Positions 1 to 12,158 of a stretch of 49,488 nt of DNA are shown in pieces; position 1 is the stretch's first letter; each line of letters opens with the position of its first letter. The DNA is taken from the NCBI GenBank assembly GCA_023258975.1, contig JAHFRD010000021.1, positions 1 to 49,488 on the forward strand, given 5' to 3'. The translations under genes and the position numbers were made by a program. The notes under the pieces are model-generated. The model was not told where the DNA came from. It was given only the letters and a program-made list of their open reading frames with translations, and did not search any database. This stretch comes from Hydrogenophilales bacterium. Its GTDB lineage: Bacteria > Pseudomonadota > Gammaproteobacteria > Burkholderiales > Thiobacillaceae.

Positions 1-112
1 CGCCAAATATCATTGGCGTGCCTTCAAATCCTGGTCCAAGGACGTCTTGGTCGATGAGGTTAGCTCCCTCCTGGCCGGCTTTGGTAATAAATTCCATATC
101 CGTTATGCGTGA
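1..112 (+). CDS. 3' end of an unidentified protein (partial)
   Basis: An open frame enters from the left edge (frame of base 2) and ends in TGA at 110-112. It gives about 36 C-terminal residues ending in GFGNKFHIRYA, rich in Trp, Lys and Phe (AKYHWRAFKSWSKDV at the start). The composition looks like real protein, but no family is recognisable from so short a tail. A weak inverted repeat (TCCCAC at 123-128, GTGGGA at 140-145) lies just after the stop and could serve as a terminator. It could also be a chance open frame. Confidence 0.45.
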   Translation, partial: AKYHWRAFKSWSKDVLVDEVSSLLAGFGNKFHIRYA

Positions 113-478
113 TTACTTATCATCCCACGAGACTTTGAAGTGGGACAATTTGCATGTTCAATGAGAAGGCGGCTGGCTGTGTAAGCGCTGCCTGAGCTGG
201 CTGCGTAACAGCTGATTAACTTCGGGCTCATGGGGGTGGGGGTAACTGAGTTCCGTCAACAAGTCCGACAAGAACAGGAAGTCTGATATTGCCTGTATCA
301 ACTGAATTGCATCGTCCAGATCTGGATTCGAGGAATCTGTCTGCGCATTTCATTGCCGGATGAGCATGACAATTTCGACTGATGAACCACTGCATTACTG
401 CAGTGCCAGCGGGACATGACCGAGTGATCACGTACTTACCAGACGGTGTCGAGTTTCTGATCAGCCGAAGATAGCGCG
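113..478. promoter_or_regulatory. leader region upstream of the ankyrin-sigma operon
   Basis: These 366 bases hold no convincing gene; a 67-codon minus-strand frame (228-431) has no recognisable content. The region is less GC-rich than the operon, as expected for a regulatory leader, and contains the imperfect direct repeat listed separately. I could not pick out a confident -35/-10 pair. The sigma gene's own start has only a weak Shine-Dalgarno (GAAG about 9 bases before the ATG). The promoter of the whole defence operon presumably lies here (inference). Confidence 0.4.
173..214. repeat. two tandem 18-base direct repeats in the operon leader
   Basis: Positions 173-190 (CTGGCTGTGTAAGCGCTG) and 197-214 (CTGGCTGCGTAACAGCTG) match at 15 of 18 bases with a 24-base period. 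They lie in the non-coding leader, about 270 bases before the sigma start. Such spaced direct repeats can be binding sites for a regulator, possibly on the same DNA face at about two helical turns. No function is shown. Confidence 0.35.
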
Positions 479-2884
479 ATGGGTACTACGGATCATCCTT
501 TCGGAAAACCACTCAACAGTCTGCTCAGGATGGCCGTCCTTGCGGGAGTGGCCGTTGCGGTGCGCCTGCACATACGCCGGGGTGACGATCTGAACGCGCG
601 GGACGGGGGTGGCATGACGCCGCTCATGCTCGCAGCCTCCAGGAACAAGGGGGAAATCTGCTCACTGCTGCTGTCGTCCGGCGCAGACCCAACGCTCACC
701 GATCCGGGTGGAAGGAACGCACTGGCCTTCGCGCGTGCGGCCGGGGCGGTCGACGCCGAGGCGATTCTGGAACCGTTTGAGTGCACGCGAGTAAATGAGG
801 TGTCTTCAGAAACCGAAATGGTTCCTGAAGTCGGACCCGTGGCAACCACTGGAGCCGACATTCCGGATCCAGATGCTCTTCCGAAACCATATCCGGACGA
901 TGAGGGCGACTCTTTCGATCTATCCGGTTGGGAAGCTGAAGAGGACGGTCCCGCGCCCGAGGACGACGGCGCGCTGGCCGAAGCAGCCCGCGTGGTCCAC
1001 AGCGCCATCTCCGCGCACGTTCCGATTGACACCTCGGAAGACTGGGGGGATTTTGATGCCTTCCTTCCAAAAATGGCCGCACCTCTTCCGAAAGCACGTG
1101 ACGAGGAAGGGCGAGAGGGGATCCTTCGAGTACTGCGCAGAGCCCTGCGCGAGGGCAGTGTGCCTGACCATGAGATCGCCAAGCTATCTGAAAACGAAGA
1201 CGGATCGCCAAACGAGGCCGGGGAAGTGCTATTGCGACTGGTACTCGGGGATATGGGTGCCGAGACCGACGAGCGGCTCGAACCGGAGGGCTCTGAAAAT
1301 GCATGGGAAGAACGGGAGGCCGATGAAGATGAGGTCTCCGAAGCCCTGGCCTATCTGGAAGAAACCAGTTCCGGTCGCAATGAACCCATGCGGCTATATG
1401 GCAGGGATGTGCGTCTTGGAAAACTCCTGACCGCCGAGGAGGAGATCACCCTCGGACAGAACATGGAGGAAGGGCTGTCCTCGGCGCTCGACGCGCTGGC
1501 GTCCTGGCCGGACGGCATTGCAGTTTTCCTGTCGGCCCTGGAGAGAGTCAGGTCGGGCGAAATCGAGGTGGAATCCATTTCGGATGGGCGAAGTGTGGAA
1601 GGGGAGGATGTTGCGCAGGAGGAAGTCCCGCTCCCCTTCGACGATCTCGAGGACGAGGATGACGGCCGGGTCGTGCAATCGCCGGCAGCGCGGGAGTTTC
1701 TGGACAGGGCTGGTGCCGTGAAGGCGCTGGCAGGCTGCGCCGGCCGGGGCGCGGCCGACGAAATGGCGCTGAGGGCAAGTCTTGCAGCCGCCCGCTTGTC
1801 TTCGTCCTTCCTCGCCGGGCTTGCCAGCGATTCGATCAAGAACACTTCGATGGAGTCGGAACGCTTCCGTCTGGCCGTCGACAGATATTCTGCCGCGAGG
1901 AGGCGCATGACCGTCTCGAATCTCCGGCTGGTGCTTTCGGTGGTCAAGCGCTACCAGGGCCTGGGCCTGCCGTTTGAGGATCTTGCTCAGGAAGGCAACA
2001 TCGGTCTGATGAAGGCCGTGGATCGATACGACTGGCACAGGGGATTTCGCTTTTCCACTTATGCGACATGGTGGATTCGTCAACAGGTCACTCGGGCGGT
2101 GGCCGACAAGGGTAAAACGATCAGAACGCCCGTGCATGTCCACAACACCATGCTGAGAATCAGGCGCGAGGCGGATGATTTGGAACGCAATGCGGGGTGC
2201 GCCCCTACGATGGATGTTCTGGCGGAAAGAGTTCCAATGACCACCACAAGGCTTTCAGCCCTGATGGCGCGCATGGAGGAACCCGTTCCATTTCATTTGC
2301 CCGATTCTTCGGGCAATGCCCCCGGCGACTGCCTGGTCGATGATTCGGTGGCCACGGATCCTTCAGCACAGGCTGAGAGAGCCGCACTGGTATCGATTCT
2401 GGAAAAAATGCTGGCCGAACTTGGCCCTCGAGAGGCAGAGGTGCTCACCCTCCGGTTCGGGTTGGAAGATGGTGACCCGCATACACTGGAAGAGACCGGT
2501 GTGCGTTACGGTGTGACCCGCGAGCGGATACGACAAGTGGAAGCCACTGCCCTCCGGAAACTGGCGCATCCGGTCCGCGCCAGCATTCTCAGGGAGTTCC
2601 TGGGGGCACCGAAGGAAAAACCTCGCAAGTCCGACGTGGCAAGCCACGACACCGAATCATGCCCGACCACCAACAGTAAAGACCAGGACGATGCCGATTG
2701 CGGACGCACCGAAGAGATGATTGCCAGACTTCGGGTGTGTGGGGCAGAGGTGGTCGATGGTCGCGCGGGCGGTGGGCAAATCGTGGTGAGAAATGTCTGG
2801 CATGGGCCGCAGACAAAAATGCTCATCCGCTCCCTGCTGGAAGACGGATTCAGGCCGTATCCGGGGATGGAGTACAGGAAATGA
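479..2884 (+). CDS. ankyrin-repeat sigma-70 family RNA polymerase sigma factor heading a defence operon
   Basis: This 801-residue protein would recruit RNA polymerase to promoters. Residues about 10-100 form ankyrin-like repeats (GGMTPLMLAASRNKGEICSL). A long acidic linker (about 100-300) follows, then sigma region 1.2 (MRLYGRDVRLGKLLTAEEE, about 304-322), region 2 (LVLSVVKRYQGLGLPFEDLA, then FSTYATWWIRQQVTRAV, about 484-541), region 3 and region 4 with an intact helix-turn-helix (GVTRERIRQVEATALRKL, about 678-695). About 90 residues after region 4 are not part of a standard sigma factor. Housekeeping sigma factors lack ankyrins. The stop overlaps the next gene's start by four bases (ATGA at 2881-2884), so translation is probably coupled. 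I infer that it controls the operon itself or senses a partner through the ankyrins; neither is shown. The start has a weak Shine-Dalgarno, so a slightly different start is possible. Confidence 0.85.
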   Translation: MGTTDHPFGKPLNSLLRMAVLAGVAVAVRLHIRRGDDLNARDGGGMTPLMLAASRNKGEICSLLLSSGADPTLTDPGGRNALAFARAAGAVDAEAILEPFECTRVNEVSSETEMVPEVGPVATTGADIPDPDALPKPYPDDEGDSFDLSGWEAEEDGPAPEDDGALAEAARVVHSAISAHVPIDTSEDWGDFDAFLPKMAAPLPKARDEEGREGILRVLRRALREGSVPDHEIAKLSENEDGSPNEAGEVLLRLVLGDMGAETDERLEPEGSENAWEEREADEDEVSEALAYLEETSSGRNEPMRLYGRDVRLGKLLTAEEEITLGQNMEEGLSSALDALASWPDGIAVFLSALERVRSGEIEVESISDGRSVEGEDVAQEEVPLPFDDLEDEDDGRVVQSPAAREFLDRAGAVKALAGCAGRGAADEMALRASLAAARLSSSFLAGLASDSIKNTSMESERFRLAVDRYSAARRRMTVSNLRLVLSVVKRYQGLGLPFEDLAQEGNIGLMKAVDRYDWHRGFRFSTYATWWIRQQVTRAVADKGKTIRTPVHVHNTMLRIRREADDLERNAGCAPTMDVLAERVPMTTTRLSALMARMEEPVPFHLPDSSGNAPGDCLVDDSVATDPSAQAERAALVSILEKMLAELGPREAEVLTLRFGLEDGDPHTLEETGVRYGVTRERIRQVEATALRKLAHPVRASILREFLGAPKEKPRKSDVASHDTESCPTTNSKDQDDADCGRTEEMIARLRVCGAEVVDGRAGGGQIVVRNVWHGPQTKMLIRSLLEDGFRPYPGMEYRK

Positions 2885-4395
2885 CCGAACGGACGCGAAA
2901 CGCCCCACCAAGGGCCGGGGCAATGATGGAGGCCCTCAGGGGGCTTGGGTACACGACGGCCGCGGCGCTGGCCGATCTCGTCGACAACAGCATCTCGGCC
3001 GGGGCTCGTGAAGCCAGGATCGGTTTCAGGTGGGAAGGCGCGCACAGCCGAATCTCTGTGCTTGACGATGGTCGGGGCTTGGACGACGCCGAACTGGAGA
3101 GCGCCATGCGGCTGGGGGATCGAAGCCCGCTGGATGAACGAGCCCCGGATGATCTCGGCCGTTTCGGTATGGGCCTCAAAACCGCCTCATTCTCACAATG
3201 CAGACGGCTGACCGTGGCTTCGGTGAAAAAGGATGGACCGGTCTGCTGCCTTCGGTGGGATCTGGACGCCCTCGCTGCACAGCCCGACGACGGATGGATA
3301 CTTTTCGAGGGGCCGGCCAAAGGCTCCGGGGATTACCTCTCGGTGATGAGCGGAATGGAGTCTGGAACGCTGGTGCTTTGGGAGGTACTCGACAGGATCG
3401 TGACGGCGCACTACACCCCGGACCATTTCGTGGATCTCATCGACGACGTCGAACGGCGGCTCGCCATGGTGTTCCACCGCCTGCTTCAGGGGCCGGGAGC
3501 GAAACTGCGGCTTTTCATCAATGATCGGCCGGTCGCCCCCTGGGATCCGTTCATGTCTGGCCATCCTTCCAAGCCCTGGAACTCGCCGGTCGAGCGGAAG
3601 GCTACAGCTTCCGGAATCGTGGAGGTGGAATGCCACGTGCTCCCTCACCGGGATCGGCTGACACCGGATGAGATTGAGGCCGCCGGAGGGCCCGAGGGCT
3701 GGACTGCCCAGCAGGGTTTCTATGTCTACCGGAATGCCCGTCTGCTCCTGGCGGGAGGATGGCTCGGCCTGGGACAGGGGCGCGCATGGAACCGCGAGGA
3801 GGCCCAGCGCCTTGCGCGCATCCGTCTCGACATTCCGAACACGGCCGATGCCGACTGGAAGATCGACATCCGGAAATCGACGGCCCGAATCCCGGTCTAC
3901 CTGCGTCCGTGGCTCACAAAGCTGGCCGAGGACACACGGGAGCGGGCGAGAAAGGTTTTCGCCTTTCGGGGGGCGCCGACACCTGGACCGGGAGGCGCCC
4001 CCGTCGAGCAGGCCTGGTGCGCGGAACATTCGAGGGCCGGCGTGCGTTACCGTATCGACGAGAGCCATCCGGCCGTCGCGGCCGCGCTCGACGCCGCCGG
4101 TCCGGCCCTGCCGCTGCTGAAGGCCATGCTCCGGATCATCGAGGAGACGGTGCCAGTCCAGCGCATCTGGCTCGACACGGCCGAACACAGGGAAACGCCC
4201 CGCAACGGATTTGCCGGGGAGCCCCCCGAGAACGTGAGGGAAGTGCTCCTGACGCTCTATGAGGACATGATCGCGCGCCGGGGCATGTCCCCAGCCCTGG
4301 CCAGGCGGACTCTGGCCTCCACCGACCCCTTCCAGAACTACCCGGATCTCGTCGCATCGCTGCCGGATGATCCGGCGGCGAACATCCAGCCATGA
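2881..4395 (+). CDS. GHKL (MORC/MutL-like) ATP-binding protein
   Basis: A 504-residue protein with an N-terminal GHKL ATPase domain. The N box is ADLVDNSISAGA (residues 31-42), followed by VLDDGRGL (60-67) and the ATP lid GRFGMGLKTASFSQC (93-107). This arrangement matches MORC and MutL-type ATPases, which clamp DNA in an ATP-dependent way, rather than sensor kinases: there is no phospho-acceptor domain. The C-terminal half is unassigned. The start at 2881 overlaps the sigma stop; an earlier in-frame start at 2698 would lie deep inside the sigma gene and is rejected. MORC-type ATPases are known from comparative genomics to sit beside Z1 helicases and nucleases in predicted restriction systems. 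A role as the ATP-driven clamp of the complex is inferred. Confidence 0.85.
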   Translation: MTERTRNAPPRAGAMMEALRGLGYTTAAALADLVDNSISAGAREARIGFRWEGAHSRISVLDDGRGLDDAELESAMRLGDRSPLDERAPDDLGRFGMGLKTASFSQCRRLTVASVKKDGPVCCLRWDLDALAAQPDDGWILFEGPAKGSGDYLSVMSGMESGTLVLWEVLDRIVTAHYTPDHFVDLIDDVERRLAMVFHRLLQGPGAKLRLFINDRPVAPWDPFMSGHPSKPWNSPVERKATASGIVEVECHVLPHRDRLTPDEIEAAGGPEGWTAQQGFYVYRNARLLLAGGWLGLGQGRAWNREEAQRLARIRLDIPNTADADWKIDIRKSTARIPVYLRPWLTKLAEDTRERARKVFAFRGAPTPGPGGAPVEQAWCAEHSRAGVRYRIDESHPAVAAALDAAGPALPLLKAMLRIIEETVPVQRIWLDTAEHRETPRNGFAGEPPENVREVLLTLYEDMIARRGMSPALARRTLASTDPFQNYPDLVASLPDDPAANIQP

Positions 4396-4408
4396 CAAGG
4401 GACCATCC

Positions 4409-7279
4409 ATGCCACAGGACGACAACAATCTGCAGGGACTCATAAGCATCGCCCAGACGCTACTGCGAAAGGAGATGGACAAGGGCGAATCCATCACCCC
4501 GGCGATCATCACCGCGAAGGTCGATGTGGCCGCCCCCATTGTCGATCTGGATGGAACTACGGACAGGTCGGCTGCGGTGGCTGAACTGATTCGGCGGTTC
4601 AGCCACTGGATCGGGCAGGACTCGACCCTGGTCGACAACGAGGGCCACGTTCCGTGGCTGGTTTCCGGGCGCAAGCGGGATTGGCGCTACTGGCAGCGCT
4701 ACCAGGGAATGATCGAGCGGAAGATGTCTTCGGCTGCTGTCGACGCTCTGGACAAGTCGACCAACGAGATTCTCGGCCTCCTCGAAGACCCTGCGCGCGA
4801 AGGGTCGTGGGATCGGCGCGGGCTGGTGGTCGGGCACGTGCAGTCGGGAAAAACCGGCAACTACTCGGGGCTGGTTTGCAAGGCGGCCGACGCTGGCTAC
4901 AAGATCATCATCGTCCTGGCCGGCCTGCACAACAATCTCCGCTCGCAGACCCAGATTCGCCTCGAGGAGAGTTTCCTCGGCTATGAGACGTCTGCCGCCA
5001 ATGAGAGCGTGAAACTCATTGGCGTGGGCGAGATCGACAGCGATCCGGAAATCCGCCCCAATTGCGCCACCAATCGCTCCAACAACGGCGATTTCAGCAC
5101 CAAGGTGGCCCAGCACTACGCCATCTCACCGGAGCAGAGGCCCTGGCTGTTCGTCGTCAAGAAAAACAAGACGGTACTCGAACGCCTCCTCAAATGGATA
5201 CGCAACCACGTGGCCGACGCCACGGATGCGGCGACGGGCCGGCGCTTCGTCACCAATCTCCCCCTGTTGCTCATCGACGACGAAGCCGATCACGCCTCGG
5301 TGGACACGGGGGAGCAGCTGTTCAACGAAGACGGCACGCCGGACAGCGAGCATGAGCCCAAGGCCATCAACAGCCGCATCCGGAAAATCCTCAACGCTTT
5401 CGCCAGGTCGGCCTACGTCGGCTACACGGCAACGCCTTTCGCCAACATCTTCATCCACCGCCGGAATGCCACGCCTGACGAGGGCCCCGATCTGTTCCCC
5501 CAATCATTCATCATCAACCTCGCCGCCCCTTCCAACTACGTCGGCCCGGCCCGCGTTTTCGGGCTGCGTTCGCCCGAGGGGCGGGTCGGCGGCCTGCCGT
5601 TGACCAGGGACGTCTCCGACCACACCGACCGGGAGGGCATCGGTGGCTGGATGCCGCCCAGACACAACAAGGAGCACGTCCCGCTACACGGCGGTCTGGA
5701 CGCCGTCCCGCCGTCCCTGAAGGAGGCTGTGGAGGCCTTCGTGCTCGCCTGTGCCGTGAGGGAAATCCGCGGGCAGGGTGGGCAACACTCGTCAATGCTG
5801 GTCCACGTCACGCGTTTCAACCTGGTACAGAGGGAGGTTCACAGGCAGGTCAACGAGATCGTCAGTCGAATGCGCCAGAGAATTTCCCGGCATATCGACC
5901 ACGAGGAAGTTCTCGCGGGTCTCGAACGCCTCTGGAAGGATGACTTCCTGCCGACCTGCGCCGAAATCGCCGCACAGGTCCAGGAGCCGGTTGGTCCGCT
6001 GGATGTTCCTGCGTGGGAGCAGATCGTCGAGGTTTTGCCGGACGTGCTGTCCGACATCGACGTCCGCATGATCAACGGTACGGCAAAGGACGCGCTCGAC
6101 TATGCCGAGCAGCGTGCCAAGGGACTCAAGGTCATCGCGATAGGCGGCGACAAGCTCGCACGGGGGCTGACCCTCGAGGGGCTGTGCGTCAGCTACTTTG
6201 TCCGGACCTCGAAGATGTATGACACCCTCATGCAGATGGGACGCTGGTTTGGCTACCGCCCTGGATACCTCGACCTGTGTCGCCTCTACACGACCGATGA
6301 TCTGGTGGAGTGGTTCGGCCACATCGCCGATGCGTCCGAGGAACTGCGCGAGGAGTTCGACGCGATGGCCCAAAGCGGGGCGACACCAAGGGAATACGGC
6401 CTCAAGGTGCAGTCGCACCCGGTCCTCATGGTCACTTCACCACTCAAGATGCGCTCGGCCAGGAACCTGCAACTCTCCTTCAGCGGGGAGTCGGTGGAAA
6501 CGGTCGCGCTGTACCGGGATCCACAAATATTGCGGCGCAACCTGGCGACGACCAACAGGCTCGTTGTAGCCATGGGTGAGCCATCCGAGAGCGATCCGAA
6601 GCGCATCCGGGCCGGCTCGAACCAGGAGTGGCGCGGCTCACACCTGTGGAATGGAGTGCCGGCAGAAACCATCGCCGAGTTCTTCTCTGCTTATGTCACC
6701 CATCCCAAGGCCAGGAAGGTTAACAGCGCGCTGCTGACCGATTTTGTCCGGAAGATGGCGTCCGGAGGCGAGCTGGTTTCCTGGACAGTTGTCCTTCTCG
6801 GAGGCGGCGACGGCGGAGAACACGAATTTCCCGGAGGGGTAAGGATCGGGAAAATGCCGACCCGGACGCCTGACAAGGACATTCCCGACCGGTATTCCAT
6901 CGGCCGTCTGCTATCCCCGCGCGACGAGGCGATCGATCTCGACGAGAACGCCTGGAAAGCGGCACTGGACATGTCGGTGAAGGCCTGGAAGCCGGATCCC
7001 GCACGCCAGAAGGACGACGCCCAGCCAACACCACCAACCATTCCCGGCGGGCCGTCCATCCGGCGCGTTCGTGGTGATGGGGCCGATGGTGTTCCGCCCG
7101 CGAGGGAACGCGGGCTCCTGCTTGTCTATCCACTCGACCCGAAGGCTGCGGGCCTTGAGGATGAGACCATGCCGGTCATCGCGTTCGGGGTGAGTTTTCC
7201 GACGAGCCGCTCCGGGACCGTTGTCGAATACCGGGTTGACCACCTGATCTGGGAGAACGAGTATGGCCCGGCCGATTGA
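4409..7279 (+). CDS. Z1 domain superfamily II helicase/ATPase
   Basis: A 956-residue protein with Walker A GHVQSGKT (142-149), Walker B LLLIDDEADHAS (about 288-299), motif III-like VGYTATPFANI (about 338-348), a motif V-like GGDKLARGLTLEGL (about 578-591) and an arginine-finger motif QMGRWFGYR (about 609-617). Together these are the Z1 helicase signature. The likely role is ATP-driven translocation or remodelling of DNA for the associated nuclease. The start at 4409 lies 13 bases after the ATPase stop with AAGGG upstream; the in-frame ATG at 4367 inside the ATPase gene is less likely. The last 17 bases overlap the next gene. Confidence 0.88.
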   Translation: MPQDDNNLQGLISIAQTLLRKEMDKGESITPAIITAKVDVAAPIVDLDGTTDRSAAVAELIRRFSHWIGQDSTLVDNEGHVPWLVSGRKRDWRYWQRYQGMIERKMSSAAVDALDKSTNEILGLLEDPAREGSWDRRGLVVGHVQSGKTGNYSGLVCKAADAGYKIIIVLAGLHNNLRSQTQIRLEESFLGYETSAANESVKLIGVGEIDSDPEIRPNCATNRSNNGDFSTKVAQHYAISPEQRPWLFVVKKNKTVLERLLKWIRNHVADATDAATGRRFVTNLPLLLIDDEADHASVDTGEQLFNEDGTPDSEHEPKAINSRIRKILNAFARSAYVGYTATPFANIFIHRRNATPDEGPDLFPQSFIINLAAPSNYVGPARVFGLRSPEGRVGGLPLTRDVSDHTDREGIGGWMPPRHNKEHVPLHGGLDAVPPSLKEAVEAFVLACAVREIRGQGGQHSSMLVHVTRFNLVQREVHRQVNEIVSRMRQRISRHIDHEEVLAGLERLWKDDFLPTCAEIAAQVQEPVGPLDVPAWEQIVEVLPDVLSDIDVRMINGTAKDALDYAEQRAKGLKVIAIGGDKLARGLTLEGLCVSYFVRTSKMYDTLMQMGRWFGYRPGYLDLCRLYTTDDLVEWFGHIADASEELREEFDAMAQSGATPREYGLKVQSHPVLMVTSPLKMRSARNLQLSFSGESVETVALYRDPQILRRNLATTNRLVVAMGEPSESDPKRIRAGSNQEWRGSHLWNGVPAETIAEFFSAYVTHPKARKVNSALLTDFVRKMASGGELVSWTVVLLGGGDGGEHEFPGGVRIGKMPTRTPDKDIPDRYSIGRLLSPRDEAIDLDENAWKAALDMSVKAWKPDPARQKDDAQPTPPTIPGGPSIRRVRGDGADGVPPARERGLLLVYPLDPKAAGLEDETMPVIAFGVSFPTSRSGTVVEYRVDHLIWENEYGPAD

Positions 7280-8267
7280 TGAATTCGTGATGGCCTGGGC
7301 CGCCCTCTCCGGCGATTCCAGCGAGGAAGGATGGAGAAGCATCCAGGTCACGCCGGCCGGCTCCTGCTCCCTGATGGCCGGTCGCAGATTTCCCGGAAAC
7401 GAGGAGGCGCTCCTCGCGGGGTTCTCGTCGGCCCGGTTGCCGCCCGCCGAGAAACTGCCCGAGGGGCAGGGCTTTGAAGTGTCGAGGGCTGACCCGCACG
7501 GTGACGGGAATACCTGGATTGCCCTGACCCGCAAGGAAACTGGAAGCCAGGAACTGTTCGCCGAAATGGTCGGAGACGTCGCCGGGGCCATGGATGCGGT
7601 GGCGACCGAAGGGGAGGAACGGCTGCTGCGCACGCTGCTTACGCGCGTCCGTTCCTGGCAGGAGTTCATGCGCAAAGGCGCGCAGGCCCTGTCCCCCGAG
7701 GCCGAAATTGGCCTCGTCGGCGAACTCGCCTTCCTCAAGGCCGTGGTCGAGTCCGGGGTTCCGGCGTCGCTGGCGGTAGAGGCATGGGTCGGGCCACTCG
7801 AAGGGATTCAGGACTTCGAACTGGGAACGGGCGCTGTGGAGGTCAAGGCGACGCTATCCTCGCAGGGTTTCCCGGCGAAGATAGGATCCCTCGAGCAGCT
7901 GGACGACACGCCGAGGAGCCCCCTTTTTGTGGCCGGCGCGCGTTTTTCACAGAGGGAATCCGGCTCGAACCTGCCAGAGTTCGCCGAGGCCGTCAGAGAG
8001 TCTCTTGCGGGCGACGGGGAGGCTCTGCGGATGTTCACCGACAGGTTGCTGGCGGCCGGCCTCCACGAGACGCACGCCGACCGCTACCCCCGGCGCTTCG
8101 TTCTCGACCGGATGCGGATCGTCGAGGTCGGTGAGGGTTTCCCACGCATGGTTCCGGGGATGGTCCCTGCGGGGATCAGGCGGGCGGTTTACGAAATTGA
8201 TCTTGACCGGGCGCCGGGCCCCGAGGTCGGGCTGGTCGAGACATTAAAAAGGCTTGGAGCGTTATGA
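7263..8267 (+). CDS. PD-(D/E)XK nuclease-like protein (DUF4420 type)
   Basis: A 334-residue protein. The conserved EIGLVGELAFLKAVV stretch (about 147-161) is followed by GIQDFELGTGAVEVKAT (about 181-197), where the Asp of QDF and the Glu and Lys of EVK would form the PD-(D/E)XK metal site. This is the pattern of the 'PD-(D/E)XK motif protein' family regularly found next to Z1 helicases. It is the best candidate for the DNA-cutting subunit. It starts inside the helicase gene (17-base overlap) and its stop overlaps the next start (TTATGA at 8262-8267), showing tight co-translation. Nuclease activity is inferred from the motif only. Confidence 0.8.
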   Translation: MARPIDEFVMAWAALSGDSSEEGWRSIQVTPAGSCSLMAGRRFPGNEEALLAGFSSARLPPAEKLPEGQGFEVSRADPHGDGNTWIALTRKETGSQELFAEMVGDVAGAMDAVATEGEERLLRTLLTRVRSWQEFMRKGAQALSPEAEIGLVGELAFLKAVVESGVPASLAVEAWVGPLEGIQDFELGTGAVEVKATLSSQGFPAKIGSLEQLDDTPRSPLFVAGARFSQRESGSNLPEFAEAVRESLAGDGEALRMFTDRLLAAGLHETHADRYPRRFVLDRMRIVEVGEGFPRMVPGMVPAGIRRAVYEIDLDRAPGPEVGLVETLKRLGAL

Positions 8268-10045
8268 GCACTGATCTGGCGGATTTTCTGAGGGAAACGC
8301 AGGCTGAGGTCAGAGCCCAGATGAAAGACGGTTCCCCCTATGCGGAGTTGCTCTTCTCCGAGGTGGTCATGCAGCACATGGCAGAGATCGGGATGACATT
8401 CGAGCCGGTCGTCGTCTGCCATTTCAAAGGGAAGGTCGGGAACGCCAACCTGCGACTGAGCGGCTATGCCATGTCCGATGACGCCGATCAGCTGGATCTG
8501 TTCGTGAGTCTCTATGAAGGCGTCGACGAGCCGACCCCCATCCCGGACGCGGACAATCTGACAGCACTTCAGCAATGCCTCAGATTCCTTACCCTGTGCG
8601 CCGAGGGGAGTATGGCACCGAAACTGGAGCCGTCCAGCGACGAGTATTCGCTGGCACTCACCATCCAGAGTATTTACGACGATCTGGAACAGGTCAGGGT
8701 GTTCGTGCTGACCGACAGGGTGGCCAGATCGAAAAGTTTCAGGACCAGGGAAATAGCGGGGAAGTCGGTCCGCCTCGAGGTGATGGACATCGAGCGGCTG
8801 TTCCGCCACTGGTCCGAGGGCAAACCACGGGACGAACTCGTGGTCGACTTCGCGGACGTCTCCGGCTCGCCACTTCCCTGCGTGTTCGTTCCGGGAACGG
8901 ATGACGAATATGATTACGCACTGACGGCCATTCCCGGTGAGGCCATGAGATATCTCTACGAACGCTTCGGTGCGCGCCTGCTGGAAGCCAACGTGCGCTC
9001 CTTCCTCAGCGTCAAGGCCAAGGGCGTCAATGCCGGGATACAGAGCACCCTTCGCACGGCCCCTGGCAGGTTCATGGCCTACAACAACGGGGTCGTTCTG
9101 GTGGCCGACGAGATGAAACTGGGACTCGCGGCTGACGGTTCACCGGGCGTGGCGTGGCTCAGGGGGATGCAGATCGTCAACGGCGGGCAGACCACGGCCT
9201 CAATCTACTTTGCGAAGAAGAAGTTCCCGGAGACTGATCTTTCAAAGGTCCGCGTACCGGCCAAGATCATTGTCATGAAGGAGCTGGACCCGGCCAGGGA
9301 GGAGGCGTTGATCTCGGACATATCGAGGTTCGCGAACACGCAGAACGTCGTGCGGCAGTCAGACCTGTCGGCCAACAAGCCCTTCCACGTGGACGTTGAA
9401 CGCCTGTCCCTGAGCGTGTTCTGTCCCGACGGTGTGGGACACTGGTTCTACGAACGGGCTGCCGGCAGTTACAACACGATGCTGGCGCGCGAGGGTACGA
9501 CGCCCGCGAAGCTGCGCACCCTCAGGGAGGCGATCCCGACCAGCCGGAAAATCACCAAGACCGATCTGTCCAAATATCTGATGGCATGGGATGGACAGCC
9601 CGACGTGGTCAGCCTGGGGTCGCAGAAATGCTTTGGCAGGTTCATGTCCTCGATGACCGTCGAGGAAGGGCAGACGCCTCCACCAGCGCCAGATGTTGCG
9701 GCTTTCAAGGCGATGGTCGCCAAGGCCATCCTGTTCAAGAAGACACAGAGCCTCGTCCGCCCGATGTTCCAGGCGTTCCAGGCGAACGTGGCTGCATACA
9801 CGGTCGCGGTGCTCTCGCGCAAACACGGAGACAGCTTCGATCTGGTCCGCGTGTGGGACCGGCAGTCGGTTTCGCCGGAATTGCTCGCACAGCTGGGCAT
9901 ATGGGCCAGGGAAGTAAACGACGTACTTCACCGTACTGCAGCCGGACGCATGGTCTCGGAGTGGGCCAAGAAGAGCGAGTGCCGGGACGCGGTGTTTGCC
10001 GCTCGCTACTCGGACCCCGAGCCGGGGATTCCTGAAATCCGCTGA
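8264..10045 (+). CDS. AIPR family (abortive infection phage resistance) protein
   Basis: A 593-residue protein carrying the AIPR hallmarks: NVRSFLSVKAKGVNAGIQST (about 243-262), a PGRFMAYNNGVVLVAD stretch just after, and MQIVNGGQTTASI (about 302-314). AIPR proteins recur in phage-resistance loci and in restriction-like operons; their biochemical activity is not well defined. It follows the nuclease-like gene with a four-base overlap, and Vsr starts nine bases after it. It could act as an effector or as an extra specificity subunit; the sequence does not decide between these. Confidence 0.85.
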   Translation: MSTDLADFLRETQAEVRAQMKDGSPYAELLFSEVVMQHMAEIGMTFEPVVVCHFKGKVGNANLRLSGYAMSDDADQLDLFVSLYEGVDEPTPIPDADNLTALQQCLRFLTLCAEGSMAPKLEPSSDEYSLALTIQSIYDDLEQVRVFVLTDRVARSKSFRTREIAGKSVRLEVMDIERLFRHWSEGKPRDELVVDFADVSGSPLPCVFVPGTDDEYDYALTAIPGEAMRYLYERFGARLLEANVRSFLSVKAKGVNAGIQSTLRTAPGRFMAYNNGVVLVADEMKLGLAADGSPGVAWLRGMQIVNGGQTTASIYFAKKKFPETDLSKVRVPAKIIVMKELDPAREEALISDISRFANTQNVVRQSDLSANKPFHVDVERLSLSVFCPDGVGHWFYERAAGSYNTMLAREGTTPAKLRTLREAIPTSRKITKTDLSKYLMAWDGQPDVVSLGSQKCFGRFMSSMTVEEGQTPPPAPDVAAFKAMVAKAILFKKTQSLVRPMFQAFQANVAAYTVAVLSRKHGDSFDLVRVWDRQSVSPELLAQLGIWAREVNDVLHRTAAGRMVSEWAKKSECRDAVFAARYSDPEPGIPEIR

Positions 10046-10054
10046 GTCCGAAAC

Positions 10055-10513
10055 GTGACCGACGTGGTGGACGCCAGCACCCGGAGTCGGATGATGTCCG
10101 GCATCCGGGGCAGGAACACCCGTCCCGAGATGGTGGTCAGGCGAGCCCTCTTCGCGGCGGGCTTCCGCTACCGGCTGCACCGCCGGGATTTGCCCGGCGC
10201 TCCTGATGTGGCACTGGGTGGGCGGAAGGTTGCGGTATTCGTGCATGGCTGTTTCTGGCACCGGCACAAGGGGTGCAGGTACGCGAAGCTGCCCGCCACC
10301 CGGCCGGAGTTCTGGAAGTCGAAACTGGAAGGAAATGCCGAACGGGACGTGCGGGCCATCGAGGGGCTGCGGGCCTTGGGCTGGCGAGTGCTGGTCGTCT
10401 GGGAATGCGCAATCCGGGACAGGGGAACGCTGTCGATCCTGCCCGAGATACTGGCGGACTGGATCAGGGGCGATGCCACCTTTGGAGAGGTCGCTGGCGG
10501 CGCGAGGCCGTGA
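10055..10513 (+). CDS. vsr: very short patch repair (Vsr) mismatch endonuclease
   Basis: A 152-residue protein, close to the 156 of E. coli Vsr. It contains TRSRMMSGIRGRNTRPEMVV near the N terminus, LPGAPDVALGGRKVAVFVHG with the catalytic Asp, and GCFWHRHKGC with His and Cys residues of the active and zinc sites. Vsr nicks 5' of the T in T:G mismatches made when 5-methylcytosine deaminates, and so travels with cytosine-5 methyltransferases; one lies next door. It starts at GTG 10055. Its last 50 bases overlap the 3' end of the convergent methyltransferase gene. Confidence 0.93.
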   Translation: MTDVVDASTRSRMMSGIRGRNTRPEMVVRRALFAAGFRYRLHRRDLPGAPDVALGGRKVAVFVHGCFWHRHKGCRYAKLPATRPEFWKSKLEGNAERDVRAIEGLRALGWRVLVVWECAIRDRGTLSILPEILADWIRGDATFGEVAGGARP

Positions 10514-12050
10514 GGAAGTCGAGGACGACTGTGGCGATTTTTCTGGCAAGCCACGGAGGAACCGCGTTCCCGACCTGAGTGTATTGTTCCGTGCGGTTTC
10601 CCTCGAAGTAGTAATCGTCCGGGAACGTCTGAAGGCGGGCGGCCTCTCGCACAGTCAGGCTGCGGCACTGGGACGGGTCATGATGGATGAAGTAATGCCC
10701 GTCCTTGGCGATGTGGGCGACAACCGTGGACGACGGCAGTCCGGCAACCTGGACTCTGAAGCGATCCTTGAAGGGGACGTCTTCATCGGCCACGTTGCCG
10801 TGGTCTGGCAGAAGGCAGGGCGGGAACTCGGCCAGCTTCGGAGAGAACTTGAAAGCCTTCGCATAGGATGACGCGAACAGATAGCGGTGGATGTCCGTGC
10901 GCATGTGGCTGCGCGTCTCGTGTTGAAGGAATCCATTGAGGCGCCGATTCAGATACCAGGCTTCGTGTTTCCTCGACAACAGGCATTCACCACCGGTCTC
11001 CTCCACGAATCGGCCTCCGCAGAACAGGTGTTTCGAGGCAGATTCTGCAGCTGCCGTCATCATCTCGGCGACTTGCGCTCTACCAACACATTTCCAGCCG
11101 GACAGCGATCTGGCCGCTTCGCGAACAGCTGAAAGCCAGGCGTCGGTTGAGTCGGGTTCCCTCGAAAGGTGGCTGCGCAGGGGGGGCAGGTCGTTGAGAA
11201 CCTGTGCGACGGTCACCAGGTTCTGCGAAGGTTGTATGACAAACCGATGAGGCTTTTCCCGGAGTTCAGGGGTTTTTCCGGCCAGGTCGGAACGGATGCC
11301 GAACAGAATCACGCGGTGCCTGCTCTGTGGCACGCCGAATCGCTCGGACTCGATCACGAAATCCATCGGCTTGAGGGTGTCGCCTTCTCCGGGCACGACG
11401 AAGGAGCGTATCTGGTAGGAAAGGCCATCGGCGGGCGCCGACAGGTCGGAGAGGATACGATCGAATATCCGGGTGCCGCCGTGCCGGGAGGAAAGCATGC
11501 CCTTGACGTTCTCCATGACAAACACGGACGGCCTGAACTGCTGAATGATGCGCAGGTATTCCCTGTAGAGAAAATGCTTCTCGTCCTTCTCGAAATCAAC
11601 GAGGGCCTCCCTGGTGCGCCTTGAGCGTCCAACGATCGAGTACGCCTGGCACGGCGGACCACCGATGAGTACCCATTCGTCGGCACCCTCCAGAGCACTC
11701 TCTATCCAGCCATCGACCTCTTCGGGTGGAATCTTCCCAAGCTCCGCGTTCCTGGCTTCCGATGCGGCCTTTCGGGCCTCCTCCGGCACATCGGGATGTT
11801 CGAAAAGCTGTTGCCGGGTGATCCTGCCGCGTGCGTAATCGTAGTAACAGTCCGGAACCCTTCCCTTTGGAAAGGCGCGAAACAGCGCGCGCAGCGACAG
11901 CGTTCTGTGGGCTACCGGATCCTTCTCGATGGAAGTTCGCAGGTCGAAGCGGCGTTCGCCATTCTCATTGATCAGGGACGAAAACCCCTCGCCGAGCCCT
12001 CCCGGCCCAGCGAACAGATCGATCACCGGAACGGGTTTCTGTTTTGCCAT
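10464..12050 (-). CDS. DNA cytosine-5 methyltransferase (Dcm-type)
   Basis: A 528-residue protein with the standard motif order: I DLFAGPGGLGEGF (about 11-23), IV GGPPCQAYS with the catalytic Cys (about 131-139), VI FVMENVKGM (about 177-185), VIII PQSRHRVILFG (about 241-251) and X QVGNAVPPWLARKIA near the C terminus. It transfers methyl groups to C5 of cytosine and presumably protects host DNA from the neighbouring nuclease operon. The variable region between VIII and X is long, and target specificity cannot be read. An in-frame ATG at 12155 would add 35 residues but lies upstream of the start point predicted from the -10-like box, so 12050 is preferred. It is convergent with the operon. Confidence 0.93.
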   Translation of the reverse strand: MAKQKPVPVIDLFAGPGGLGEGFSSLINENGERRFDLRTSIEKDPVAHRTLSLRALFRAFPKGRVPDCYYDYARGRITRQQLFEHPDVPEEARKAASEARNAELGKIPPEEVDGWIESALEGADEWVLIGGPPCQAYSIVGRSRRTREALVDFEKDEKHFLYREYLRIIQQFRPSVFVMENVKGMLSSRHGGTRIFDRILSDLSAPADGLSYQIRSFVVPGEGDTLKPMDFVIESERFGVPQSRHRVILFGIRSDLAGKTPELREKPHRFVIQPSQNLVTVAQVLNDLPPLRSHLSREPDSTDAWLSAVREAARSLSGWKCVGRAQVAEMMTAAAESASKHLFCGGRFVEETGGECLLSRKHEAWYLNRRLNGFLQHETRSHMRTDIHRYLFASSYAKAFKFSPKLAEFPPCLLPDHGNVADEDVPFKDRFRVQVAGLPSSTVVAHIAKDGHYFIHHDPSQCRSLTVREAARLQTFPDDYYFEGNRTEQYTQVGNAVPPWLARKIATVVLDFLTASRRQRPLQRWHRP

Positions 12051-12158
12051 TTCATCTTGTCGTTGTCTTGTAAACGCTGTGCCCGGAACGGTCAGGCTGG
12101 CAGCATCCGCAACTTCACCAGACAATTCGATATGGTTCTGAGAAATACTCAACATATC

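What the first reader, a model, noticed from the sequence alone, without database searches (positions are those of the whole stretch)
479..12050. A dedicated ankyrin-sigma factor heads a MORC-ATPase/Z1/nuclease/AIPR restriction-like operon
Five coupled plus-strand genes (sigma, GHKL ATPase, Z1 helicase, PD-(D/E)XK, AIPR), then Vsr and a convergent C5 methyltransferase, form one unit. MORC ATPase plus Z1 systems are known as predicted restriction modules, but a full-length sigma factor with ankyrin repeats as the first gene, joined by a four-base overlap, is not part of any such system I know. It may gate defence-gene expression, or act as a sensor that hands RNA polymerase to defence promoters.
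Basis: partly seen in the sequence, partly recalled or inferred. Interest (0 to 1): 0.82.

Follow-up and report, generated by a model that had tools for sequence, protein, structure and literature searches.

The report
Mza phage-defence operon with sigma-factor subunit
This is a member of a known bacterial anti-phage operon (Mza) whose first gene is a copy of the cell's main transcription sigma factor fused to ankyrin repeats, and comparison of relatives suggests that this sigma part has been re-copied from the host's own sigma gene on several separate occasions.

Summary

New here: MzaA has two modules. An ankyrin arm with acidic linker and region-1.1-like domain stays with the operon. The rest (1.2 to 4) is RpoD-type; four -35-reading residues are kept in 69 of 69. 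In some relatives, not in the window, this part comes from rpoD of the host's own lineage, more than once; the lineage signal lies mainly in the non-conserved region. So MzaA most likely docks on RNA polymerase and ordinary promoters, tying Mza effectors to host transcription, rather than choosing special defence promoters. Whether it targets, senses, baits or only regulates is untested.

The parts
479..2884 (+). mzaA: ankyrin + linker + region-1.1-like domain + sigma-70 regions 1.2-4 + C-terminal extension (801 aa)
   Evidence: PADLOC MzaA 4.4e-72; Pfam; AlphaFold2 mean pLDDT 81.9, pTM 0.55; Foldseek's best matches are RpoD/SigA chains, E from 5e-20, TM by query length at most 0.29
530..754 (+). 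ankyrin repeats of MzaA (residues 18-92)
   Evidence: Pfam Ank_2 1.2e-7; Ank_2 in 49 of 54 MzaA scanned at E <= 0.1
950..1378 (+). acidic linker with invariant W and LPE motif, then region-1.1-like domain (residues 158-300)
   Evidence: alignment A3, 45 rows; hhalign to RpoD region 1.1, P 3.5e-5, probability 71.7; Pfam Sigma70_r1_1 in only 2 of 45, best E 0.0056; Foldseek of this piece alone: nothing at E <= 0.001
1385..2602 (+). sigma part, regions 1.2-4 (residues 303-708)
   Evidence: Pfam r1.2, r2, r3, r4; profile of 54 MzaA aligns 215-711 to RpoD 6-616; residue counts
2696..2881 (+). C-terminal extension (residues 740-801), shared with part of the family, function unknown
   Evidence: helix/strand content of the model; extensions listed
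2881..4395 (+). mzaB: MORC/MutL-like GHKL ATPase
   Evidence: PADLOC MzaB 1.1e-194; HATPase_c_3 4.5e-28; MORC2 chains at E 0.0018
7263..8267 (+). mzaD: DUF4420, putative PD-(D/E)XK nuclease
   Evidence: PADLOC MzaD 2.7e-60, DUF4420 1.2e-76
8264..10045 (+). mzaE: AIPR protein
   Evidence: PADLOC MzaE 1.5e-216, AIPR 2e-87
10055..10513 (+). Vsr-type nicking endonuclease
   Evidence: Pfam Vsr 4.1e-29; a Vsr match (phmmer E <= 1e-3, anywhere in the locus) in 42 of 47 well-covered relatives
10464..12155 (-). C5 cytosine DNA methyltransferase
   Evidence: Pfam DNA_methylase 1.4e-44; a match (phmmer E <= 1e-3, anywhere in the locus) in 43 of 47 well-covered relatives

Best explanation
[not shown]
For: Sigma gene upstream of MORC in 62 of 67 relatives with room and 44 of 47 loci with 8 kb or more on both sides. 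R584, E585, R588, Q589 (E. coli numbering, roles recalled) kept in 69 of 69 MzaA; W434 68, Q437 67, R441 68 of 69. RpoD-type sequence of host lineage: on 515 columns (E. coli 94-608) L025 pairs with its own genome's RpoD, L063 with a Rhodocyclales RpoD, L010/L011 fall within Gallionellaceae, L036/L038 within Competibacteraceae. One origin of all 13 MzaA with RpoD-length middle region, a group named by length and not by tree, is rejected (p 1.3e-72); the non-conserved region alone rejects one origin of seven (p 3.1e-4). In L063, L010 and L011 every segment from 1.2 to 4 is closer to RpoD than to any of the MzaA outside the eight RpoD-like ones, while the arm stays Mza-type. So RpoD sequence is enough for that half. 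Pairwise distances of the arm track MzaB/MzaE/MzaC (r 0.78/0.83/0.47) better than those of the core (0.57/0.51/0.35), 43 loci.
Against: No biochemistry. Five Pseudomonas/Stutzerimonas loci do without mzaA, and their genomes gave only partial matches to the arm profile, the widest 86-237 of 285 at E 4.1e-6, so it is dispensable there. Without the non-conserved region (266 columns) the evidence for several origins is weak: p 0.034 for seven rows, 0.056 for five, 0.24 for L063 with L010/L011, and a single clade of all 68 MzaA rows used is not rejected (p 0.686). So outside L063, L010 and L011 the exchange is shown firmly only for the non-conserved region. Three of 13 (L031, L056, L079) do not fall beside their host's lineage. 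Co-inheritance of the arm is expected for any part with no homolog elsewhere, so it does not prove contact. Some promoter-region residues differ in the window: Y425F, E458N, K593T, R599A. The sigma finger is degenerate (RpoD consensus 0.18), but own RpoS (0.24) and RpoH (0.29) are similar, so this says nothing either way.
Confidence: 0.4

Rival explanations
1. Plain regulator: MzaA is a sigma-70/sigma-S-class factor that only transcribes the Mza operon (and perhaps other genes), with the ankyrin arm as a built-in brake that is released on infection.
For: First gene of a tightly coupled operon; promoter-reading residues kept; per-region divergence from RpoD is of the same order as that of the genome's own RpoS, a working alternative sigma; mzaA can be lost (5 of 67).
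Against: Predicted specificity is close to that of RpoD, so it would add little as a dedicated switch; no sigma-70-like consensus promoter was found in window 1-520 (a crude scan); the arm is conserved with the operon although a brake for a general sigma need not be.
Confidence: 0.3
2. Integrated decoy or guard: the sigma part is a bait copy of host RpoD. Phage anti-sigma or RNA-polymerase-modifying proteins bind it and trigger the effectors.
For: A bait would be a copy of the host target and be refreshed from it, as seen in some relatives. PMC10924106 (passages) lists mzaA among high-mutation-frequency defence genes irrespective of environment, with positive selection noted in its PF04546 part. 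Sensing of phage interference with host transcription is a known principle (PMC12409349, passages).
Against: Host rpoD is also the obvious homologous template in the cell, so host origin is expected without selection for mimicry. DNA-contact residues stay invariant, which a protein bait does not obviously need. Own RpoD scores as high on PADLOC's MzaA model as the window protein (256 vs 241 bits), so published mzaA counts may be affected if a similar model was used.
Confidence: 0.2
3. Passenger: a duplicated rpoD fused to ankyrin that hitch-hikes in the operon without a role in defence.
Against: Kept upstream of MORC in 62 of 67 and in 7 of 7 loci with a full Mza-type MORC, with invariant promoter-contact residues across proteins 21-48% identical to the window's.
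Confidence: 0.05

Closest known systems
Mza (MzaABCDE), Gao et al. 2020 (recalled; paper not held), as modelled in PADLOC
   Same: All five proteins, in order, on one strand; MzaA is called a sigma factor in PMC9523054 (passage)
   Different: The ankyrin arm, 1.1-like domain and RpoD exchange are not mentioned in the passages I saw; Vsr and a C5 methyltransferase lie beside it
MORC/paraMORC restriction-modification operons of Iyer, Abhiman and Aravind 2008 (PMC2292703, passages)
   Same: MORC-type GHKL ATPase, SF2 helicase, nuclease, AIPR, DNA methylase and Vsr genes are named in the passages
   Different: No occurrence of 'sigma' or 'ankyrin' in that text
Type II system of PMC9523054 (passage)
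   Same: Core proteins plus AIPR, reminiscent of Mza; about 20% identity to MzaBCDE
   Different: mzaA 'present only in a few of the systems'; the sigma-less loci L128-L138 and L140-L144 may belong here (my inference)
Group-1 sigma factor RpoD
   Same: Regions 1.2-4, promoter-contact residues, 1.1-like domain
   Different: Ankyrin arm and acidic linker; non-conserved region short in 56 of 69 MzaA (median 122 residues among them, RpoD 215-266); exists beside the genome's own RpoD
CglI/NgoAVII restriction-modification systems (PMC4267653, passages)
   Different: Three genes only: no MORC, AIPR or sigma gene; PLD/B3 nuclease

Membership tests
Mza system | MzaA-B-C-D-E homologs in order on one strand | tested here: met
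   order
Mza system | first gene is a sigma factor of the MzaA clade, not just any sigma | tested here: met
   PADLOC's MzaA model does not separate MzaA from RpoD, but the window arm matches the MzaA N-terminal profile over 3-285 of 285; of 369 genomes searched only the window's and G220, the two with MzaC over 1200 bits, show such a full match in the list, which is sorted by E-value and cut at the weak end; the other listed matches are mostly ankyrin-length. The window itself is among the 45 rows of that profile.
Mza system | protects against phage | not testable with these tools
   no experiment possible
Functional sigma-70 factor | regions 2 and 4 with core-binding and promoter-contact residues | tested here: met
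Functional sigma-70 factor | binds RNA polymerase and starts transcription | not testable with these tools
   inferred from residues only
Alternative sigma with its own promoter class | promoter-contact residues different from RpoD | tested here: not met
   four -35 residues identical in 69 of 69; the window keeps ten of eleven -10 positions looked at (Y425F); K593T and E458N are outside these
Integrated decoy | carries a copy of the host target, repeatedly acquired | tested here: met
   for some relatives, with the limits; the window's own copy is an old one (0.45 identity to own RpoD)
Integrated decoy | bound by a pathogen protein, which triggers the effector | not testable with these tools
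   no data
Type II restriction-modification | cognate methyltransferase and endonuclease | tested here: inconclusive
   C5 methyltransferase, Vsr and DUF4420 present; cognacy not shown

The most novel reading that the evidence does not exclude
Mza is a transcription-coupled immune system: MzaA is an immune adaptor whose bait or docking half is a copy of the cell's own housekeeping sigma factor, refreshed by recombination with the host's rpoD, while the ankyrin/1.1-like half stays with the effectors. This would be a bacterial counterpart of integrated-decoy receptors, watching RNA polymerase itself.
Probability: 0.27. Interest if true: 0.87.

Novelty: new member of a known kind. Interest (0 to 1): 0.55.

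Why it matters
In the listings of my literature searches I saw no mechanism for Mza, and why a defence operon should carry a sigma factor is open. The two-module reading, with a half exchangeable for host RpoD and an arm that is not, turns this into direct experiments: swap or delete the sigma part, mutate the -35 helix, pull down RNA polymerase, express phage anti-sigma proteins. If right, a defence system found in many proteobacteria watches or uses host transcription.

Tried and rejected
Rejected or weakened: (1) a new, unnamed system: Mza by PADLOC and by text. (2) A sigma with a private promoter class. (3) Degenerate sigma finger as a sign of a non-initiating sigma: own RpoS and RpoH are about as different from RpoD there. 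(4) PADLOC's MzaA score as proof of identity: own RpoD scores 256 bits, window MzaA 241. (5) Promoter scan upstream of mzaA: nothing found. (6) Foldseek on the linker/1.1 piece alone: nothing at E <= 0.001; hhalign gave P 3.5e-5. (7) Where the exchange signal lies: on 266 columns without the non-conserved region, one MzaA clade is not rejected for 68 MzaA (p 0.686), and for seven chosen rows p is only 0.034 (five rows 0.056, three rows 0.24). On 515 columns one origin is rejected (RpoD as one clade p 5e-8; seven MzaA 1.5e-51 and five 4e-39; all 13 with RpoD-length middle region 1.3e-72); on the non-conserved region alone p 3.1e-4. The seven rows were chosen, so their p-values are not strict; six were left out (L017, L021, L031, L035, L056, L079, branches 0.8 or longer), while L062 (1.34) was kept; L030_rpoD was also left out there. 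The row L081 was dropped from the tree for gaps. (8) A first RpoD set picked wrong frames in seven genomes and was redone. (9) Literature: the listings (40 of 63 shown; 25 of 86 shown) showed no paper on MzaA function or on ankyrin-sigma fusions; Gao 2020 is not held.

Full report

Architecture of MzaA. At E <= 0.1 Pfam finds sigma regions 2 and 4 in 54 of 54 MzaA scanned (54 of the 69 in hand), ankyrin repeats in 49, region 1.2 in 28, and the RpoD non-essential region in 14. AlphaFold2 on the 54-row alignment gives mean pLDDT 81.9 and pTM 0.55; Foldseek's best matches are RpoD and SigA chains. The family profile aligns to RpoD from residue 6 on, that is including region 1.1; profile-profile comparison of the linker piece with RpoD falls on region 1.1 (probability 71.7, P 3.5e-5). 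Pfam's own r1.1 model is weak (2 of 45) and Foldseek of the piece alone found nothing, so I call it 1.1-like. Between ankyrin and 1.1 lies an acidic linker with an invariant tryptophan (W189 in 54 of 54) and an LPE motif.

Promoter reading. In E. coli numbering (residue roles recalled) R584, E585, R588 and Q589 are kept in 69 of 69 MzaA; W434 in 68, Q437 in 67, R441 in 68; W433 in 51 and T429 in 52. Of eleven -10 positions looked at, the window differs from its own RpoD at Y425F only; elsewhere it has E458N, K593T and R599A. This predicts RpoD-like specificity. Region by region the window's MzaA has diverged from RpoD about as much as the genome's own RpoS.

RpoD sequence in MzaA. I fetched RpoD from 21 of 23 relative genomes asked for (two not held). 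Eight MzaA have sigma parts 61-81% identical to the window genome's RpoD; the median of the 68 relatives is 45%. Clearest case, L063: from residue 373 to its end it is 73% identical to a Rhodocyclales RpoD, while its arm is nearest to L022 (0.55), as is its MORC (81%), and the core of L022 is only 0.44 identical to its own host's RpoD. L010 is 71% identical to its own genome's RpoD from residue 311 on. By segment, in L063, L010 and L011 each of 1.2, the non-conserved region, r2, r3 and r4 is closer to RpoD than to any MzaA outside the eight, while 1.1 is not (RpoD 0.14-0.19, MzaA 0.51-0.63). In the other five (L035, L036, L038, L025, L062) the non-conserved region and r2 are RpoD-like, the rest only partly.

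How often, and from whom. On 515 columns, 13 MzaA with an RpoD-length middle region and 25 RpoD: RpoD as one clade is rejected (p 5e-8) and starred branches force at least 4 changes; all 13 as one clade are rejected (p 1.3e-72). Ten of 13 fall beside RpoD of their host's own genome, family, order or class; L031, L056 and L079, on long branches, do not. With seven of the 13: at least 5 forced changes; L025 with its own RpoD (99), L063 with a Rhodocyclales RpoD (99; its own is not held), L010/L011 within Gallionellaceae (99), L036/L038 within Competibacteraceae (100); L062 is with its own RpoD (87/75) but unresolved. L010, L025 and L062 are not titled as MAGs. The limit of this evidence: the lineage signal sits mainly in the non-conserved region. 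Alone it rejects one origin of seven (p 3.1e-4); without it p is 0.034, and 0.056 or 0.24 for smaller sets, and one clade of 68 MzaA is not rejected (p 0.686). So several separate entries of host-lineage RpoD sequence are shown, at least of the non-conserved region; whole 1.2-4 replacement is supported for L063 and for L010/L011. The window's own sigma part is an old, diverged one (0.45).

What it says. The simplest inference is that RpoD sequence suffices for that half of MzaA and that what is special to Mza is the arm. The arm's pairwise distances follow MzaB, MzaE and MzaC (r 0.78, 0.83, 0.47; MzaB-MzaE 0.74) better than the core's do (0.57, 0.51, 0.35; without seven captured loci 0.67, 0.64, 0.42), in 43 of 45 loci. 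It does not prove that the arm touches MzaB or MzaE: a part without a homolog elsewhere cannot be converted. Nor does host origin prove mimicry, since rpoD is the obvious template at hand.

Verdict. Observation confirmed, novelty claim about the gene not confirmed, mechanism partly supported. New member of a known kind, with a new and testable observation about its family.

Noticed in passing
window 12316-48312: A prophage-like block on the minus strand begins right after the methyltransferase: of 12 ORFs scanned, matches to endolysin, HNH, tail, tape measure, major head, head-tail adaptor, terminase, ParB/methyltransferase, primase and Sak4. Mza may be prophage cargo.
   Followed up: partly
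L147 121-13359; L145: Viral contig L147 has the same layout as the window: MzaA-E, Vsr, convergent methyltransferase, then an endolysin; L145 has Mza genes near a tail fibre gene.
   Followed up: partly
L073 5965-8478; L087 5194-8514: Two alphaproteobacterial MzaA carry GcrA DNA-binding domains, one match in L073 and three in L087. GcrA is a sigma-70 partner at methylated promoters (recalled), which would fit a methylation-aware sigma.
   Followed up: no
PADLOC model PDLC02203: The MzaA model scores the genome's own RpoD (256 bits) above the window's MzaA (241 bits), so it cannot tell them apart by itself.
   Followed up: yes
L041, L043, L044, L045, L049: Pseudomonas and Stutzerimonas Mza loci lack mzaA and have a C5 methyltransferase directly before MORC.
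   Followed up: partly
window 2696-2881: C-terminal extension of MzaA with a conserved pattern of glycines, a WV-like pair and a PGKGYW-like end in several relatives; no Pfam match in the window protein there.
   Followed up: no
L033, L040, L046, L051: These Mza loci have a second AIPR-like gene directly after mzaE.
   Followed up: no
L112, L113: The two Duganella genomes G020 and G018 have a second full-length RpoD.
   Followed up: no
MzaA region 3.2 (sigma finger): The sigma finger has lost the RpoD consensus in most MzaA (mean 0.18 against 0.95 within RpoD), but RpoS and RpoH of the same genome are similar.
   Followed up: partly
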